From Mycobacterium colombiense CECT 3035 (lineage in GTDB: Bacteria; Actinomycetota; Actinomycetes; Mycobacteriales; Mycobacteriaceae), in contig NZ_CP020821.1 in NCBI RefSeq assembly GCF_002105755.1, positions 1,178,001 through 1,242,000 on the forward strand: DNA of 64,000 nt, given 5' to 3'. The notes under the pieces were generated by a model. The model ran no database searches. It was not told the origin of the DNA and saw only the letters and a program-made list of their open reading frames with translations. How positions within the stretch are numbered: position 1 is the stretch's first letter; every line of letters begins with the position of its first letter. Below, in pieces: positions 44,008-49,483 of this stretch. The position numbers and the translations under genes were made by a program.

Positions 44008-45471
44008 ATGAGCACGGAGATACCGGCAACAGTCAGCGCGGACGGCGTGACCACCTGGTCGGACGACGTCGACGTCGTGGTGATCGGGTTCGGCATCGCC
44101 GGCGGCTGCGCCGCGGTGAGCGCGGCGGCGGCCGGCGCGCGGGTGCTGGTGCTCGAACGCGCGGCCGCGGCGGGTGGCACCACTTCGCTTGCCGGAGGCC
44201 ACTTTTACCTCGGCGGCGGGACCGCGGTGCAGCAGGCAACCGGTCAAGAGGATTCCCCCGAGGAGATGTACAAGTACCTGGTCGCGGTGTCGAGGCAGCC
44301 CGACCTCGACAAGATCCGCGCCTACTGCGACGGCAGCGTCGAGCATTTCAATTGGCTGGAGGACCTGGGTTTCCAGTTCGAACGCAGCTACTACCCGGGC
44401 AAGGCGGTGATCCAGCCCAACACCGAGGGGTTGATGTTCACCGGCAACGAGAAGGTGTGGCCGTTTTTGGAGAAGGCCGTGCCGGCCCCACGCGGCCACA
44501 AGGTACCGGTGCCCGGTGATACCGGTGGCGCCAGCATGGTGATCGATCTATTGCTCAAGCGTGCCGCCGACTTGGGCGTGCAAATCCGCTACGAGACGGG
44601 CGCTACCGAATTGATCGTGGACGGCTCCGGCGCGGTGACCGGCGTGATGTGGAAGCAGTTCTCCGAAAGCGGTGCGATCAAAGCGAAGTCGGTCATCATC
44701 GCCGCGGGCGGTTTCGTGATGAATCCCGACATGGTGGCCGAGTACACCCCGAAGCTGGCCGAGAAGCCGTTTGTGCTCGGCAACACCTACGACGACGGTC
44801 TGGGCATCCGGATGGGTGTATCGGCCGGCGGTGCCACCCAACACATGGATCAGATCTTCATCACGGCGCCGCCGTACCCGCCGTCGATCCTGCTGACCGG
44901 GATCATCGTGAACAAGCTCGGACAGCGTTTCGTTGCCGAGGATTCCTACCATTCCAGGACTTCCGGATTCATCATGGACCAGCCGGACAGCGCCGCGTTT
45001 CTCATCGTCGACGAGGCGCATCTGGAACATCCCAAAATGCCGCTGGTACCGCTGATCGATGGATGGGAAACAGTTCCGGAAATGGAAGCCGCGCTTGGCA
45101 TTCCGGAAGGCAACCTGGTAGCGACGCTGGACAGGTACAACGCCAACGCCGCCCGCGGTGAGGATCCAGATTTTCACAAGCAGCCGGAGTTCCTTGCGCC
45201 GCAAGACAAGGGGCCGTGGGGCGCGTTCGACATGTCATTGGGCAAGGCGATGTATGCCGGTTTCACCATCGGCGGCCTCGCGGTGACGGTCGACGGCGAG
45301 GTGCAGCGCGCCGACGGCAGCGTGGTGCCCGGCCTGTACGCCGCGGGCGCGTGCGCGTCCAACCTCGCCCAAGACGGCAAGGGGTACGCGAGCGGGACCC
45401 AGTTGGGCGAGGGATCGTTCTTCGGCCGCCGCGCCGGAGCGCACGCGGCCCGGCGGGCCGGGGCAGCGTAG
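44008..45471 (+). CDS. FAD-dependent oxidoreductase (Rv1817-like flavoprotein)
   Basis: 487 residues of the fumarate reductase/3-ketosteroid dehydrogenase flavoprotein superfamily. N-terminal Rossmann motif VVVIGFGIAGGCAAVSAAAAG followed by LVLERAAAAGGTT, the mid-domain SVIIAAGGFVMNPDMV, and C-terminal VVPGLYAAGACASNLAQDGKGYASGTQLGEG, which closes on FAD. ATG 44008 follows GAGGAGGAG. Its last 13 codons and stop lie in the first copy of a 56-bp tandem repeat. The preceding VOC protein suggests a small catabolic unit. Steroid or cyclic-ketone substrates are possible but unproven. Confidence 0.88.
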   Translation: MSTEIPATVSADGVTTWSDDVDVVVIGFGIAGGCAAVSAAAAGARVLVLERAAAAGGTTSLAGGHFYLGGGTAVQQATGQEDSPEEMYKYLVAVSRQPDLDKIRAYCDGSVEHFNWLEDLGFQFERSYYPGKAVIQPNTEGLMFTGNEKVWPFLEKAVPAPRGHKVPVPGDTGGASMVIDLLLKRAADLGVQIRYETGATELIVDGSGAVTGVMWKQFSESGAIKAKSVIIAAGGFVMNPDMVAEYTPKLAEKPFVLGNTYDDGLGIRMGVSAGGATQHMDQIFITAPPYPPSILLTGIIVNKLGQRFVAEDSYHSRTSGFIMDQPDSAAFLIVDEAHLEHPKMPLVPLIDGWETVPEMEAALGIPEGNLVATLDRYNANAARGEDPDFHKQPEFLAPQDKGPWGAFDMSLGKAMYAGFTIGGLAVTVDGEVQRADGSVVPGLYAAGACASNLAQDGKGYASGTQLGEGSFFGRRAGAHAARRAGAA

Positions 45472-45600
45472 GCGCGCAACGACACAGCGCCGGAGCGCAC
45501 GCGGCCCGGCGGGCCGGGGGAGCGTAGCCGCGCAAAGACACCGCGCGGGAGCGCACGCGGCCCGGCGGGCCGGGGCAGCGTAGCCGCGCTACGGCGCCGC
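45433..45600. repeat. 56-bp tandem repeat, three copies (VNTR-like)
   Basis: Copies begin at 45433, 45489 and 45545 with a period of exactly 56 bp. The core GAGCGCACGCGGCCCGGCGG is the same in all three; the last ~10 bp diverge. Copy 1 encodes the end and stop of the flavoprotein; copy 3 runs into the stop of the convergent PhnZ-like gene. The period is not a multiple of three, so copies 2 and 3 are non-coding. It marks the junction between conserved synteny and the inserted phosphorus cassette. Confidence 0.93.
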
Positions 45601-46191
45601 CGCGAACTCCACCATGGCCTCCACGGTGGGACGATAGTGCTCGATCGGTGGGACGCGCCGGCCGGAAACCTTTGCCGCGTCATCCCAGCGGCGCAGCCGG
45701 CAAGCTTGGCCGGCGTGGCGCAGACGGCCGAAGTGGACGATTTCCTCGGCATTCATCGGTCCGCCCTGTACCCGCAGACTTTGCACCGAGGCGGGCGAAA
45801 GGCCGCAAGCGTAGGACGGATCGGTCGCGACCAGGTAGCGCTTCGCGGCGACGTGCAGCGCGATCGGTGCGGTCACGGCGGGCGGGAACCAACGACCGAG
45901 GATGCTCGCGGCGACAACTTGGTGTTTCTCGTCGCCGTTCAGGAAGTCGCGGTTGCCACTGTGTTCGTCGACCACGAGATGACCGAGGTCATGTAGTAGC
46001 GCCGCGATTACCATTGCGGCGCCGGCATTTTCGGCGTCGGCGAGGGCGGCGCACTGGGCTGCGTGTTGAGTTTGGGTAACCGCGTCGTCGTAATGGCTGT
46101 CACCACGCTCGGCGAACAGCGCGAAGATCTCGTCGGTCACAGCTCTCGCCGTGGTGAGACGTGTGTGCGGCCAATGTGGTCTGGTTGTCAT
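45589..46191 (-). CDS. PhnZ-like HD-domain mixed-valent di-iron oxygenase
   Basis: 200 residues of the phosphonate-associated HD family (PhnZ/TmpB type), which cleaves a C-P bond of an alpha-hydroxylated phosphonate with O2 to give phosphate and, from 2-aminoethylphosphonate, glycine. All six metal ligands of the MIOX/PhnZ type are visible: His43 (TQTQHAAQCAALA), His67-Asp68 (LLHDLGH), His90 (EKHQ), His113 (ALHVAAKRYL) and Asp170 (LRRWDDAAK). Lys117 and the LSPASVQSLR...QGGPM segment also match the family. The Tyr-x-x-Glu capture motif appears as HYDDA, so the Glu is replaced by Asp. Its ATG follows the dioxygenase stop with no gap (TAGATG). Confidence 0.85.
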   Translation of the reverse strand: MTTRPHWPHTRLTTARAVTDEIFALFAERGDSHYDDAVTQTQHAAQCAALADAENAGAAMVIAALLHDLGHLVVDEHSGNRDFLNGDEKHQVVAASILGRWFPPAVTAPIALHVAAKRYLVATDPSYACGLSPASVQSLRVQGGPMNAEEIVHFGRLRHAGQACRLRRWDDAAKVSGRRVPPIEHYRPTVEAMVEFAAAP

Positions 46192-47022
46192 CTACTGGTT
46201 CTTCTCGGTGGGGGCGACGCCGCGGAAGTGGCCGATGAGGCTGAGTCGTTGCGCCCCGCGGTCGCCGGCGAGGGTCGCAGCGGACAGCGCGGCGCGCTTG
46301 TCGCGGTAATAGGTTTCGTGCAAGTCGCCCAGGGAGGCCGCGTTATAGGTGAGATACAGCGCCCGTCTCGAGGCGGGCGACGTGTTGGGCGCGCTGCGGT
46401 GTGGCGTGTGGCTGTGAAACCACACCAACGAACCGGCGGCCACGGAACAGGGTTGCCATGTCAGCTCATCGGCGATGCCGGGGTGGATGCAACCGTCTCC
46501 GTCGGTGCTCAGTAGTTGGTGGTGCATACCGGGCACGAACTCGAGGCATCCGTTCTCGACGGTCGAATCGTCAACCGCGAGAAGGCAACTGACGCTGACG
46601 GTGATGTGGGGATACGCGCGGGCGTCCTGGTGGGCCGCGAATCCGGCCCCACCGGGGTGCTTGTAGTTGATCTTCTCCTTATAGAGGACGGCGGGCTCGC
46701 CGAGCAGCTGGCCGGCCATCGCCGGAATGGCGGCGGTGGTCAACAGCGCGCGCAGATGATCGTGACACGGCGAAAAGTTCTCCGTGCGGGCACGCCGAAC
46801 CAGCCCGCCGATCTGCTCGTCGTGCTGTAGCCAGGGCACGCCGGGCTCGTCGGGCCATCGCTCGACCTCTTCGACCCAGCTCTGCAGGCGGGTCACGCCT
46901 TCGCCGGACAAGAACCCGGGTAGCACCAGGTAGCCGTCTCGGCCGAACGCGTCGAGTTCGGCCGGGGAAAGGCGCTCCGCGGGCTGGAGAACGTCGGTGG
47001 CGAGGTGGCGGTGCGTCGGCAT
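46192..47022 (-). CDS. PhnY*-like Fe(II)/2-oxoglutarate dioxygenase (PhyH family)
   Basis: 276 residues of the phytanoyl-CoA dioxygenase family. The double-stranded beta-helix has the iron triad His131-Gln-Asp133 (FAAHQDARAY) and His208 (HTPHRSAPN); Arg219/220 would bind 2-oxoglutarate. The LYKEKINYKHPGGAGF segment before the HxD motif is characteristic of PhnY*/TmpA-like enzymes that hydroxylate the alpha carbon of aminoethylphosphonates. It is co-transcribed with the PhnZ-like gene, the product of which would take the hydroxylated intermediate. Start ATG 47022. Family and pairing are strong; the exact phosphonate is unknown. Confidence 0.83.
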   Translation of the reverse strand: MPTHRHLATDVLQPAERLSPAELDAFGRDGYLVLPGFLSGEGVTRLQSWVEEVERWPDEPGVPWLQHDEQIGGLVRRARTENFSPCHDHLRALLTTAAIPAMAGQLLGEPAVLYKEKINYKHPGGAGFAAHQDARAYPHITVSVSCLLAVDDSTVENGCLEFVPGMHHQLLSTDGDGCIHPGIADELTWQPCSVAAGSLVWFHSHTPHRSAPNTSPASRRALYLTYNAASLGDLHETYYRDKRAALSAATLAGDRGAQRLSLIGHFRGVAPTEKNQ

Positions 47023-47079
47023 GCTGTCCCTTCGGTGCTCAGAGCTTCCGTGACGGACCGTAGCAAGCCATGGAATTTA

Positions 47080-47151
47080 GTTTCAAGCTACGATGTAGGC
47101 AGGAATGAAACTTCCATCCTTTGTTCACCCGCAATTCGGTAGATCGTTTCA
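47080..47151. promoter_or_regulatory. Divergent promoter of the phosphorus cassette with GTTTCA and PHO-like sites
   Basis: The 150-bp gap between the dioxygenase and the transporter contains GTTTCA (47080-47085), TGAAAC (47106-47111) and GTTTCA (47146-47151): an inverted pair plus a third half-site, suitable for the RpiR regulator encoded downstream. GTTCACCC (47123-47130) resembles a PHO-box unit, and 47123-47155 can be read as three 11-mers. No clear -10/-35 pair was found. Confidence 0.4.
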
Positions 47152-47172
47152 TCGCCTCGTTACCGTCGCCGC

Positions 47173-48606
47173 ATGACACAGACCCGGAGTCACCCGGCCG
47201 AGGCACCAAGCGTGATCGACGTTCTGGACAAATCTCGATTTCAGCGCTTCCACTACAAGGCGATCGTGGTCTCAGGTGCGGGATTTTTCACCGACGCCTA
47301 CGACCTGACCGTCATCGGTACCGCCCTGCTGCTGATCAAACCGGAATGGGGGTTGAGCACCGGCCAGGTGGCGATGTTGGGCAGCAGCGCCCTGATCGCC
47401 TCGGCGATCGGGGCCATCCTGTGCGGCAGGCTGTCCGACGTCTTGGGGCGCAAGCGCATGTACGGGCTGGCCGCCCTGGTCATGACCCTCGCGGCCATCG
47501 CCTCGGGCTTGTCACCGAACTTCATGTGGCTGCTGGTATTTCGCTTCATCCTCGGTATCGCCATCGGTGGCGACTATCCGGTGTCGGGCGTGATGATGAC
47601 CGAGTTCGCCAACGTCGTCGACCGCGGCCGGATGGTCGCGTTGATGTTCTTCAGCTACGTGCTGGGCTCCATCGCCGGGCCTGCCGTCGGCCTGCTCTTG
47701 CTGGGATCCGGGCTGGACCACTCGTTGACCTGGCGGTTGCTGCTCGGCCTAGGGGCCGTGCCGTCTCTGCTGGTTGTCTATGCCCGCTCGAAAACGCCGG
47801 AGTCGCCGAGGTTCCTGGCCGAAATCGACGAGGAGCGGGCGGCCTCGGACCTGACCACGTTCAGCGGGACCACGGCGGTCGCCACCGGCACGCCGCCGGC
47901 CCGCCGCACAATGCGGCAATGCCTCACGGCACCCGGCGTCTGGCGGGCCGTGCTCATGACGGCCGGGGTGTGGTTCCTGTTCGACATCGCCTATTACGGC
48001 AACACCATCAGCGCGCCCCTGCTGGTGAAAAACGTTGCGCCGCACGCCTCCGCGATGGAAACGGTCGCCGTCAACCTGGTGTTGTACGCGGCGTTCACGG
48101 TGCCGGCATTCGGCGTCACGATCTGGGCGATCGACAAGATCGGCCACATCAGGCTGCAGGTCATCGGGTTGATCGGGATGGCAGCGGGGCTCGCCGCCAT
48201 TGCGCTGGTGCCGGCGGTCAGAAACAACGTCGGGCTCTTCATCGCCGCATATGGGCTCAGCAGCTTCTTCGTGTGGTTCGGGCCCGGCGTGGCGACCATG
48301 CTGCTCTCCGCCGAGCTGTTCGCCACGTCGATTCGCGCGACCGCGCACGGCTTCGCCGCGGGCACCGCCAAGATCGGGGCGTTCGTGGGCGCGATCACCT
48401 TTCCGCCCATGCTCGCGGCGTGGGGATTGCAGGGCACCGAACTCGTCGCGGCGGCGTGCTGCCTGGGGGCCGCAGGCTTGTCCTTCCTGGTGCCCGAACC
48501 GCGCGGGCGATCGCTCGACGACATCGCCTCGACCGGACGCGACGATCGCACGCCGGCGACCGCCGGTCTGGCTCTACCCCAACCCGCGGCGTCCGCCGTG
48601 CCATGA
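47173..48606 (+). CDS. MFS transporter, phosphate:H+ symporter (PHS)-like
   Basis: 477 residues with twelve predicted transmembrane helices and a central loop around residues 205-245. ILGIAIGGDYPVSGVMMTEFA and the later WFGPGVATMLLSAELFATSIRATAHG are close to signatures of the Pho84/PHS family, and GRLSDVLGRKRMYG is the general MFS motif A. It likely imports phosphate, an organophosphonate or a related anion. ATG 47173 has no obvious Shine-Dalgarno, so the mRNA may be leaderless or the start weak. Divergent from the PhnY*/PhnZ-like pair and followed by the RpiR gene. Confidence 0.83.
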   Translation: MTQTRSHPAEAPSVIDVLDKSRFQRFHYKAIVVSGAGFFTDAYDLTVIGTALLLIKPEWGLSTGQVAMLGSSALIASAIGAILCGRLSDVLGRKRMYGLAALVMTLAAIASGLSPNFMWLLVFRFILGIAIGGDYPVSGVMMTEFANVVDRGRMVALMFFSYVLGSIAGPAVGLLLLGSGLDHSLTWRLLLGLGAVPSLLVVYARSKTPESPRFLAEIDEERAASDLTTFSGTTAVATGTPPARRTMRQCLTAPGVWRAVLMTAGVWFLFDIAYYGNTISAPLLVKNVAPHASAMETVAVNLVLYAAFTVPAFGVTIWAIDKIGHIRLQVIGLIGMAAGLAAIALVPAVRNNVGLFIAAYGLSSFFVWFGPGVATMLLSAELFATSIRATAHGFAAGTAKIGAFVGAITFPPMLAAWGLQGTELVAAACCLGAAGLSFLVPEPRGRSLDDIASTGRDDRTPATAGLALPQPAASAVP

Positions 48607-48613
48607 TTCACCC

Positions 48614-49483
48614 ATGACGACCACCGATCCCCGGCCTCCGACGGGATCGGTGGTCGCGCATATCCGCGCGGCGTTGCCTAACCTGACCCCTCGGGCGCGG
48701 ACGATCGGTCAAGCGGTCCTGGACGATCCCCGGGCGATCATCCACATGACGGTCAGCGACCTCGCGGAGCACACCGCCACCTCGGTGGCCTCGGTGGTGC
48801 GGTTCTGTCAGGACGTGGGCCTGCGTGGTTACGCAGACCTGAAGATCCGGCTGGCCGCCGACACCATTCCCGCCGAAGAGGCCCTGCCCGAGGGCCTCAG
48901 CCCGACCGACGACGCGTTCACGGTCTTGAAGAAGGTGCTCGCCGATTCGCAGGCGGCGGTTGCGGGAGCCGCCGACACGATCGACAGCGCAATGTTCGAA
49001 TCGGCGGTCGTCGCCCTGGCCGGCGCGTCTCACGTGCTCTGTGTCGGAGTGGGGACATCCGCGCCACCCGCCCAGGACGCCGGATATCGGTTGCGCACAA
49101 TAGGTTTGAGCGCGGAAGCGCCCGCGGACGGGCACGTTCAACACGTCGCGGCCCGACTGCTCAAGCCCGGCGCGGTGTGCCTGTGCTTCAGCCACACGGG
49201 TCAGACCAGCGAGTCGCTGATGGCGGTGGAAGCGGCCCGCGATGCCGGCGCCACCACCATTGCCATCACCAGTTTCTACCGCTCGCCACTGAGCGCACTG
49301 TGCGACATCGTGCTGGTGGCGGGGGCCAAAGAGACCGACTTCCGCGTGGAAGCCGTCACCAGCCGCATCGCGCACATCGCGGTGTTCGATGCCTTGCACG
49401 CCGCGGTCTTCCTCAAGACGTCGCGGCGGGCGGGCGAGGCGCAGCGGGTCACCGCGGAAGCCCTTACCCGGCACCGCATTTAG
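48614..49483 (+). CDS. RpiR family transcriptional regulator (HTH + SIS domain)
   Basis: 289 residues. The N-terminal RpiR helix-turn-helix (MTVSDLAEHTATSVASVVRFCQ in two helices, GLRGYADLKIRLA) is followed by a SIS phosphosugar-binding domain (HVLCVGVGTS, CLCFSHTGQTSESLMAVEAA, TTIAITSF). These regulators sense phosphorylated metabolites. ATG 48614 is 7 bp after the transporter stop, so it is in the same operon. It probably controls the divergent phosphonate genes. Ends 3 bp from the convergent bacA stop. Confidence 0.88.
   Translation: MTTTDPRPPTGSVVAHIRAALPNLTPRARTIGQAVLDDPRAIIHMTVSDLAEHTATSVASVVRFCQDVGLRGYADLKIRLAADTIPAEEALPEGLSPTDDAFTVLKKVLADSQAAVAGAADTIDSAMFESAVVALAGASHVLCVGVGTSAPPAQDAGYRLRTIGLSAEAPADGHVQHVAARLLKPGAVCLCFSHTGQTSESLMAVEAARDAGATTIAITSFYRSPLSALCDIVLVAGAKETDFRVEAVTSRIAHIAVFDALHAAVFLKTSRRAGEAQRVTAEALTRHRI

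What the first reader, a model, noticed from the sequence alone, without database searches (positions are those of the whole stretch)
45589..49483. Phosphonate-scavenging cassette at the ESX-5-to-bacA junction
Four adjacent genes share a phosphorus theme: a PhnZ-like HD oxygenase with all six di-iron ligands, a PhnY*-like Fe/2-oxoglutarate dioxygenase joined to it with no gap (TAGATG), a PHS (Pho84)-type transporter and an RpiR regulator with a phosphometabolite-sensing SIS domain. PhnY*/PhnZ is an established two-step route that turns 2-aminoethylphosphonate into glycine and phosphate. The block sits where M. tuberculosis has PE_PGRS33, between Rv1817 and bacA homologues. Inference: a mycobacterial operon for using host or environmental phosphonates as a phosphorus source. 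The pairing with a PHS transporter and an RpiR regulator, in place of PhnCDE/PhnWX-type genes, is unusual as far as I know.
Basis: partly seen in the sequence, partly recalled or inferred. Interest (0 to 1): 0.85.

Follow-up and report, generated by a model that had tools for sequence, protein, structure and literature searches.

The report
Phosphonate-eating gene cassette in mycobacteria
A few mycobacteria carry a movable four-gene cassette that very probably imports a carbon-phosphorus compound and burns it in two oxygen-using steps to free phosphate; it belongs to a little-known side branch of a known pathway, so its real food molecule is still to be found.

Summary
In detail: four genes at the stated coordinates, as two divergent pairs. 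The HD protein is a PhnZ/TmpB-type oxygenase by sequence, ligands and fold. The phosphonate reading is supported, but not PhnY*/PhnZ turning 2-aminoethylphosphonate into glycine. The HD loop that holds the amine-contacting Glu in PhnZ/TmpB is one residue shorter here. That short loop is found in all 32 examined HD genes beside this class of dioxygenase; none of 58 loci with other loops has that dioxygenase. It is shared with planctomycete pairs whose dioxygenases pass NCBI's methylphosphonate-hydroxylase cut-off. Four relatives sit beside PhnDCE-type genes. The window's dioxygenase nevertheless lies in a supported actinobacterial clade where two otherwise common residues near the iron site (Phe, His) are replaced. 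All eight loci of that clade whose surroundings were read carry an RpiR regulator; 24 other loci do not. A 17-bp promoter site is identical between a mycobacterial and a Dietzia-plasmid cassette and 16/17 in the window. The transporter keeps six of eight phosphate-pocket residues. The unit occurs in 5 of 396 mycobacterial genomes, once at another locus. Best reading: an RpiR-controlled oxidative phosphonate-scavenging module of a new sub-branch, substrate unresolved.

The parts
45589..46191 (-). HD-domain mixed-valent di-iron oxygenase of the PhnZ/TmpB family, short-loop (Y34-D35-D36) PhnZ1-like type
   Evidence: TIGR03276 210.7 bits (cut-off 214.6), NF052439 181.8 (300), TmpB 147.7 (300); the four PDB sequences matched are TmpB and PhnZ; model pLDDT 89.5, ten best folds all TmpB/PhnZ
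46192..47022 (-). PhyH-fold Fe(II)/2-oxoglutarate phosphonate hydroxylase, 'clade B' pocket (H139, S143)
   Evidence: NF052437 methylphosphonate hydroxylase 276.4 bits (cut-off 500); H131, D133, H208, S210, R219 invariant in 124 of 124 rows; model pLDDT 91.9, nearest folds include proline hydroxylase H11, EctD, PHYHD1
47173..48606 (+). PHS-type MFS importer with altered phosphate pocket (Gln to Tyr162, Asn to Gly372)
   Evidence: six best PDB sequences are named phosphate transporters; 6 of 8 pocket residues named in PMC6761603 kept; orthologue of at least 78% identity only in the same 5 of 392 genomes
48614..49483 (+). RpiR regulator (HTH_6 + SIS)
   Evidence: Pfam HTH_6 and SIS; homologues beside the relatives in Rhodococcus (51%), Dietzia (48%), Nocardia (45%), Rhodospirillaceae (32%)
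47103..47119 (.). Candidate RpiR operator GAATGAAACTTCCATCC
   Evidence: 16 of 17 to a site identical in Mycobacterium G268 and Dietzia plasmid promoters; one hit in 64 kb at up to 3 mismatches, 0.03 expected; motif chosen after comparing the promoters
47071..47085 (.). Second conserved inverted repeat TGGAATTTAGTTTCA in the divergent promoter
   Evidence: only hit in the window; recognisable in the alignment of 5 orthologous promoters
47123..47138 (+). Weak PHO-box-like GTTCACC-N4-ATTCG
   Evidence: GTTCAC conserved in 5 of 5 promoters, but GTTCACC occurs 21 times in the window

Best explanation
A mobile, self-contained phosphonate-scavenging module. The PHS-type MFS protein imports a phosphonate (inferred). 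The Fe/2OG enzyme hydroxylates the carbon next to phosphorus. The di-iron HD enzyme then cleaves the C-P bond with O2, releasing phosphate and a carboxylic acid (inferred from homologues). RpiR binds a palindrome in the shared promoter and derepresses both arms when it senses the phosphonate or a product (inferred). The enzyme pair belongs to the methylphosphonate-type PhnY2/PhnZ1 lineage rather than to PhnZ or TmpA/TmpB. Within it, it lies in an RpiR-linked actinobacterial sub-branch with a changed pocket, so the substrate is probably a small phosphonate other than 2-AEP; methylphosphonate is possible but not shown.
For: HD family and fold. Catalytic residues complete in both enzymes. Short loop: 32 of 32 HD genes with the neighbouring dioxygenase; 0 of 58 loci with other loops have that dioxygenase. 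Planctomycete references: dioxygenases 505-565 bits against 500 in 6 of 6 hits, the one HD protein scored 409 against 300, same YDE loop in all six. HD tree: window in a starred 98/90 clade with them, PhnZ and TmpB outside. Relatives beside phosphonate genes, 4 of 26 loci outside Mycobacterium: L051 with PhnL (below its cut-off), PhnM, PhnD, PhnC, PhnE; L160 with PhnM and PhnDCE, L162 with PhnDCE, L041 with PhnDCE and RpiR (by tblastn; PhnD and PhnC of L041). Four-gene unit kept in all 5 carriers, in G017 at another locus. RpiR in 8 of 8 clade-B loci with known context and in L050, 0 of 24 other loci. Shared 17-bp site across genera. Transporter pocket.
Against: No biochemistry. HD misses the TIGR03276 cut-off by 4 bits, and both enzymes are far below the methylphosphonate equivalog cut-offs. 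HD rows with the dioxygenase do not form one clade (2 changes), and HD and dioxygenase trees are not fully congruent. Clade-B genera have different putative importers (MFS, PhnDCE, YaaH), so the MFS role is inferred. G621 (L143/L169) has non-Phe, non-His pocket residues without an RpiR nearby. L044 is short-loop, inside the planctomycete branch, without the dioxygenase. The operator motif was chosen after looking; two of five mycobacterial promoters (G017, G059) do not reach 14 of 17. PhnY* itself was not available for comparison.
Confidence: 0.8

Rival explanations
1. Methylphosphonate pathway proper: methylphosphonate to hydroxymethylphosphonate to phosphate and formate, as reported for Gimesia maris PhnY2/PhnZ1.
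For: Best NCBIfam match of the dioxygenase and second-best of the HD protein are the Gimesia-type models; 48-50% identity to references over the cut-off; shared short loop and HD clade.
Against: 276 and 182 bits against cut-offs of 500 and 300. Pocket differences F139 to H and H143 to S. The dioxygenase sits in a separate starred clade of 19 rows. RpiR was not found at the three reference-type loci scanned with wide flanks (L170-L172).
Confidence: 0.3
2. One reading: PhnY*/PhnZ, 2-AEP to glycine and phosphate.
For: Same HD family and fold. G. maris-type PhnZ is reported to cleave both hydroxy-AEP and HMP (PMC10574752, passages).
Against: YxxE loop, whose Glu contacts the amine in PhnZ/TmpB (PMC8177086, passages), is replaced by a shorter Y-D-D; tree placement (where PhnZ is a long branch).
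Confidence: 0.12
3. The pair does not act on phosphonates; the HD enzyme cleaves another alpha-hydroxylated compound and the phosphorus theme of the neighbours is incidental.
For: No assay; RpiR regulators usually serve sugar metabolism (general knowledge).
Against: Fold matches only PhnZ and TmpB at E under 1e-9, next match E 0.5; PhnDCE-type genes beside four relatives.
Confidence: 0.07

Closest known systems
PhnY2/PhnZ1 of Gimesia maris (methylphosphonate hydroxylase NF052437 / HMP dioxygenase NF052439; that these models stand for the G. maris pair is my reading of their names)
   Same: Same two enzyme families, adjacent genes, short YDE-type loop, same HD clade
   Different: Below the equivalog cut-offs; two pocket residues replaced; RpiR and PHS-type MFS neighbours not found at the reference-type loci scanned
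PhnY*/PhnZ (2-aminoethylphosphonate)
   Same: HD fold, six ligands, two-step chemistry
   Different: Long YIGE loop in PhnZ; separate HD branch; PhnY* itself not compared
TmpA/TmpB (trimethyl-AEP)
   Same: HD fold, two-step chemistry
   Different: TmpA model matches a TauD/GBBH-type protein, not PhyH-type; TmpB has the long YLGE loop; another mycobacterium carries a TmpA/TmpB-like pair
PHS/Pho84-type phosphate:H+ symporters
   Same: Four of the five named proton-relay residues (the four tested) and 6 of 8 phosphate-pocket residues
   Different: Gln177 to Tyr and Asn431 to Gly (PiPT numbering); 213 bits against a cut-off of 610

Membership tests
PhnZ/TmpB-type HD mixed-valent di-iron oxygenases | H...HD...H...H...D ligands | tested here: met
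PhnZ/TmpB-type HD mixed-valent di-iron oxygenases | Gating Tyr before the first ligand helix | tested here: met
   Y34 invariant in 30 of 30 rows
PhnZ/TmpB-type HD mixed-valent di-iron oxygenases | Fold | tested here: met
   ten best PDB matches are all TmpB/PhnZ, next match E 0.5
PhnZ (2-AEP) / TmpB | YxxE loop with the amine-contacting Glu | tested here: not met
   YDDA, one residue shorter
NF052437/NF052439 (methylphosphonate hydroxylase / HMP dioxygenase) | Equivalog score cut-offs (500 / 300 bits) | tested here: not met
   276.4 and 181.8 bits
NF052437/NF052439 (methylphosphonate hydroxylase / HMP dioxygenase) | Activity on methylphosphonate / HMP | not testable with these tools
   needs enzyme assay
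TIGR03276 phosphonate degradation HD-domain oxygenase | Score 214.6 bits | tested here: inconclusive
   210.7 bits for the window; five relatives scored: L041 214.6, L051 214.4, L032 214.0, L042 213.5, L145 198.4, so the cut-off grazes this branch
Fe/2OG PhyH dioxygenases | HxD...H facial triad, 2OG Arg and Ser | tested here: met
   H131, D133, H208, S210, R219 in 124 of 124 rows; PhyH 104.3 bits. The assignment of Ser and Arg to 2OG binding is recalled
PHS phosphate:H+ symporter TIGR00887 | Equivalog cut-off 610 bits | tested here: not met
   213 bits
RpiR/MurR regulators | HTH_6 plus SIS | tested here: met

The most novel reading that the evidence does not exclude
Clade B (Mycobacterium, Pseudonocardia, Corynebacterium, Nocardia, Rhodococcus, Dietzia and relatives) is a further oxidative phosphonate pathway with its own substrate, neither 2-AEP, trimethyl-AEP nor methylphosphonate, sensed by a dedicated RpiR/SIS regulator through a conserved operator and carried between actinobacteria partly on plasmids.
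Probability: 0.45. Interest if true: 0.75.

Novelty: new variant of a known kind. Interest (0 to 1): 0.56.

Why it matters
It would mean that a few mycobacteria can live on organic phosphorus that others cannot, and that a regulator family best known for sugar phosphates has been recruited to phosphonates. The two pocket residues and the operator make substrate and regulation directly testable. A further point is that genes of apparently three oxidative phosphonate lineages (PhnZ1-like, TmpA/TmpB-like and PhnZ-like) occur within the one genus.

Tried and rejected
Rejected: PhnY*/PhnZ identity (loop and tree). Rejected: HD phosphohydrolase reading. Rejected: a single operon. A PHO-box reading of GTTCACC was kept only as a weak lead, since the 7-mer occurs 21 times in the window. 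Consensus sigma-70 promoters: none found. Transporter or regulator genes typical of the planctomycete references were looked for but not resolved. PhnY* could not be compared because no sequence of it was at hand. Recent transfer is not indicated by base composition: cassette genes 0.657-0.685 GC against 0.679 for the window. The plasmid search found 39 records; of the 30 listed only Rhodococcus NJ-530 and Dietzia DQ12-45-1b exceed 50% identity. The order-wide search (387 genomes) found the dioxygenase at E up to 1e-50 only in G000 and G017; the phylum search found the class in 15 of 396 genomes, these two among them. Whether residues 139 and 143 line the pocket was not measured, as no coordinates were returned; they lie 6 and 10 residues after the iron ligand D133.
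Full report
Anatomy. The HD gene (45589-46191) directly follows the Fe/2OG gene (46192-47022) on the minus strand as TAGATG. The MFS gene (47173-48606) and the RpiR gene (48614-49483) run the other way. So this is two divergent pairs around a 150-bp promoter region.

HD enzyme. NCBIfam gives TIGR03276 'phosphonate degradation HD-domain oxygenase' 210.7 bits (cut-off 214.6), HMP dioxygenase 181.8 (300) and TmpB 147.7 (300). The only PDB sequences matched at E up to 1 are TmpB and PhnZ, and the ten best folds of the predicted model are TmpB and PhnZ, the next match having E 0.5. H43, H67, D68, H90, H113 and D170 are invariant in 30 rows. In PhnZ and TmpB a YxxE loop swings so that its Glu contacts the substrate amine (PMC8177086, passages read). 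Here the loop is Y-D-D-A, one residue shorter.

Which lineage. I compared 109 HD rows: 106 loci (120 profile hits less repeat fetches and identical sequences), the window, and the PDB stretches of PhnZ and TmpB, which have no locus here. All 32 rows with a neighbouring dioxygenase of this class have the short loop. None of the 56 long-loop or 2 odd-loop loci has that dioxygenase in the stretch fetched. 17 short-loop rows lack it; in one of these, L076, it is cut by the contig end. Some loci end close to the HD gene, so single absences can be due to contig ends. Part of the set was fetched by its dioxygenase, so the frequency of the neighbour is biased, but loop length was not selected for. Six of 392 genomes of a planctomycete phylum carry a dioxygenase at E up to 1e-50, all over the NF052437 cut-off (505-565 bits). 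Their HD neighbours have the YDE loop, and the one scored passes the HMP dioxygenase cut-off (409 against 300). In the HD tree the window falls in a 17-row starred clade (98/90) with these, Poribacteria, Nocardia, G525, a planctomycete MAG and a Rhodospirillaceae; L044 in it lacks the dioxygenase. PhnZ and TmpB lie elsewhere. HD rows with the dioxygenase need two changes, so they are not one clade; a second clade of 14 holds most other actinobacteria. The bootstrap had not settled, and PhnZ is a long branch.

Phosphonate context of relatives. L051: PhnL (213 bits, below its cut-off) and PhnM before the dioxygenase-HD pair; PhnD-type, PhnC and PhnE after, over cut-offs. By tblastn with those proteins: L160 has PhnM, dioxygenase, HD, GntR, PhnD, PhnC, PhnE; L162 PhnDCE; L041 (Nocardia higoensis) PhnDCE and RpiR. 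These are 4 of the 26 dioxygenase-HD loci outside Mycobacterium scanned. In the window's own genome PhnJ was not found, and the best PhnD-type hit has 31.7 bits against a cut-off of 112; among the other carriers G268 has both over cut-off and G233 a PhnD-type protein.

Pocket types. Iron and 2OG residues H131, D133, H208, S210 and R219 are identical in 124 of 124 dioxygenase rows (window, 120 database proteins, L145, L041, L050). Positions 139 and 143 split them: F/H 57, F/T 3, H/H 2, and 62 with neither. The reference type is F/H; the window is H/S. In a 51-row tree the window lies in a starred 100/95 clade of 19 rows (17 non-F/non-H, 2 mixed) with Mycobacterium, Pseudonocardia, Corynebacterium, Nocardia, Rhodococcus, Dietzia and unnamed or MAG relatives; L050 and L143 are non-F/non-H outside it. 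That these positions touch the substrate is an inference from their closeness to the HxD motif; no coordinates were available.

RpiR. Clade-B loci whose surroundings were read are 5 mycobacteria, Nocardia, Rhodococcus and Dietzia: all 8 carry RpiR. L050, outside the clade, also does. None of 24 other dioxygenase loci does at E up to 1e-12 within the flanks fetched, which vary in length. The Rhodococcus and Dietzia plasmid clusters and L050 also have a cobalamin-independent methionine-synthase-like protein and a calcineurin-like phosphoesterase. Neither lies in the window.

Operator. GGATGAAACTTCCATCC is identical in the divergent promoters of Mycobacterium G268 (the same contig as L040, Mycobacterium sp. 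1465703.0) and the Dietzia plasmid, 16 of 17 in the window (47103-47119) and 15 of 17 in Rhodococcus. In 1.98 Mb of loci, repeat fetches included, only one unrelated site (L106) reaches 15. In the window there is one hit at up to 3 mismatches, with 0.03 expected. The motif was picked by comparing these promoters, so the numbers flatter it. G233 keeps 14 of 17; G017, G059 and Nocardia do not reach 14. TGGAATTTAGTTTCA (47071-47085) is a second conserved repeat.

Transporter. The six best solved relatives are named phosphate transporters. Of eight pocket residues listed for PiPT (PMC6761603, passages read), six are kept and two are replaced (Q177 to Tyr162, N431 to Gly372) in all five orthologues. 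The two changes are also found in the 45% relative beside a different PhnZ-like HD gene in G260, which in addition has Asn for D324. The numbering was mapped by me through the 7sp5 alignment, assuming a two-residue offset. This fits a transporter for a phosphate-like group other than phosphate; it is an inference.

Distribution and site. An HD orthologue of at least 72% identity is found in 5 of 396 genus genomes; 92 others have only distant HD relatives. An MFS orthologue of at least 78% is in the same five, of 392; the other hits at E up to 1e-90 are at most 49%. G059 is a draft with 7% contamination. The unit sits between the FAD gene and bacA in G000, G268 and G233, beside the FAD gene in G059 (contig ends in RpiR), and elsewhere in G017, where no FAD or bacA was found in the 43 kb read. 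Six of six cassette-less genomes examined have the FAD gene and bacA as neighbours. The cassette therefore behaves as a movable unit. Its GC does not stand out.

Literature. Four oxidative variants are reviewed in PMC10574752 (passages): 2-AEP, methylphosphonate, trimethyl-AEP and the fungal PhoF fusion. Searches listed no paper whose title or abstract start describes a mycobacterial or RpiR-linked PhnY/PhnZ-type cassette; two searches listed only 20 of 29 and 25 of 75 papers. I read passages of PMC6581173, PMC8177086, PMC10574752, PMC8316502, PMC4415409, PMC6754071, PMC10132767 and PMC6761603 only. The primary papers on PhnZ, TmpA/TmpB and G. maris PhnY2/PhnZ1 were not read.

Verdict. The named pathway is wrong in lineage and probably in substrate. 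It is a new variant of a known kind.

Noticed in passing
L036, L038, L039 (G295, G290, G070): Three other mycobacteria have an HD gene that branches with TmpB (94/81, just under the tree's strong mark). In G295 a TmpA-type dioxygenase over its NCBIfam cut-off (441.7 against 400) lies beside it, suggesting trimethyl-AEP use in the genus. The G290 match (L007) carries a stop.
   Followed up: partly
L035 (G260), L037 (G009): Other mycobacteria carry an HD gene with a YEDE loop that branches with PhnZ (94/88) and has no dioxygenase of this class nearby: in L037 beside a GntR/UTRA regulator, a phosphate-acyltransferase-like protein and a PgtP/GlpT-like MFS; in L035 beside a PHS-like MFS.
   Followed up: partly
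L173 (G268 C168): One carrier genome also has PhnJ and PhnD over their cut-offs, with PhnC, PhnE, PhnL and PhnM matches around them.
   Followed up: no
window 45429-45600: Three copies of a GC-rich repeat at 56-bp spacing run from the 3' end of the FAD gene to the 3' end of the HD gene.
   Followed up: no
L177, L178: Rhodococcus NJ-530 and Dietzia DQ12-45-1b plasmids share a seven-gene cluster: RpiR, phosphoesterase/PQQ-propeller, methionine-synthase-like, a second Fe/2OG dioxygenase, YaaH transporter, PhyH dioxygenase, HD. Transposase genes (Rhodococcus) or recombinase and Abi/Shedu genes (Dietzia) are annotated nearby.
   Followed up: partly
L162 (G525): Two dioxygenases of this class lie back to back next to the HD gene and PhnDCE matches.
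   Followed up: no
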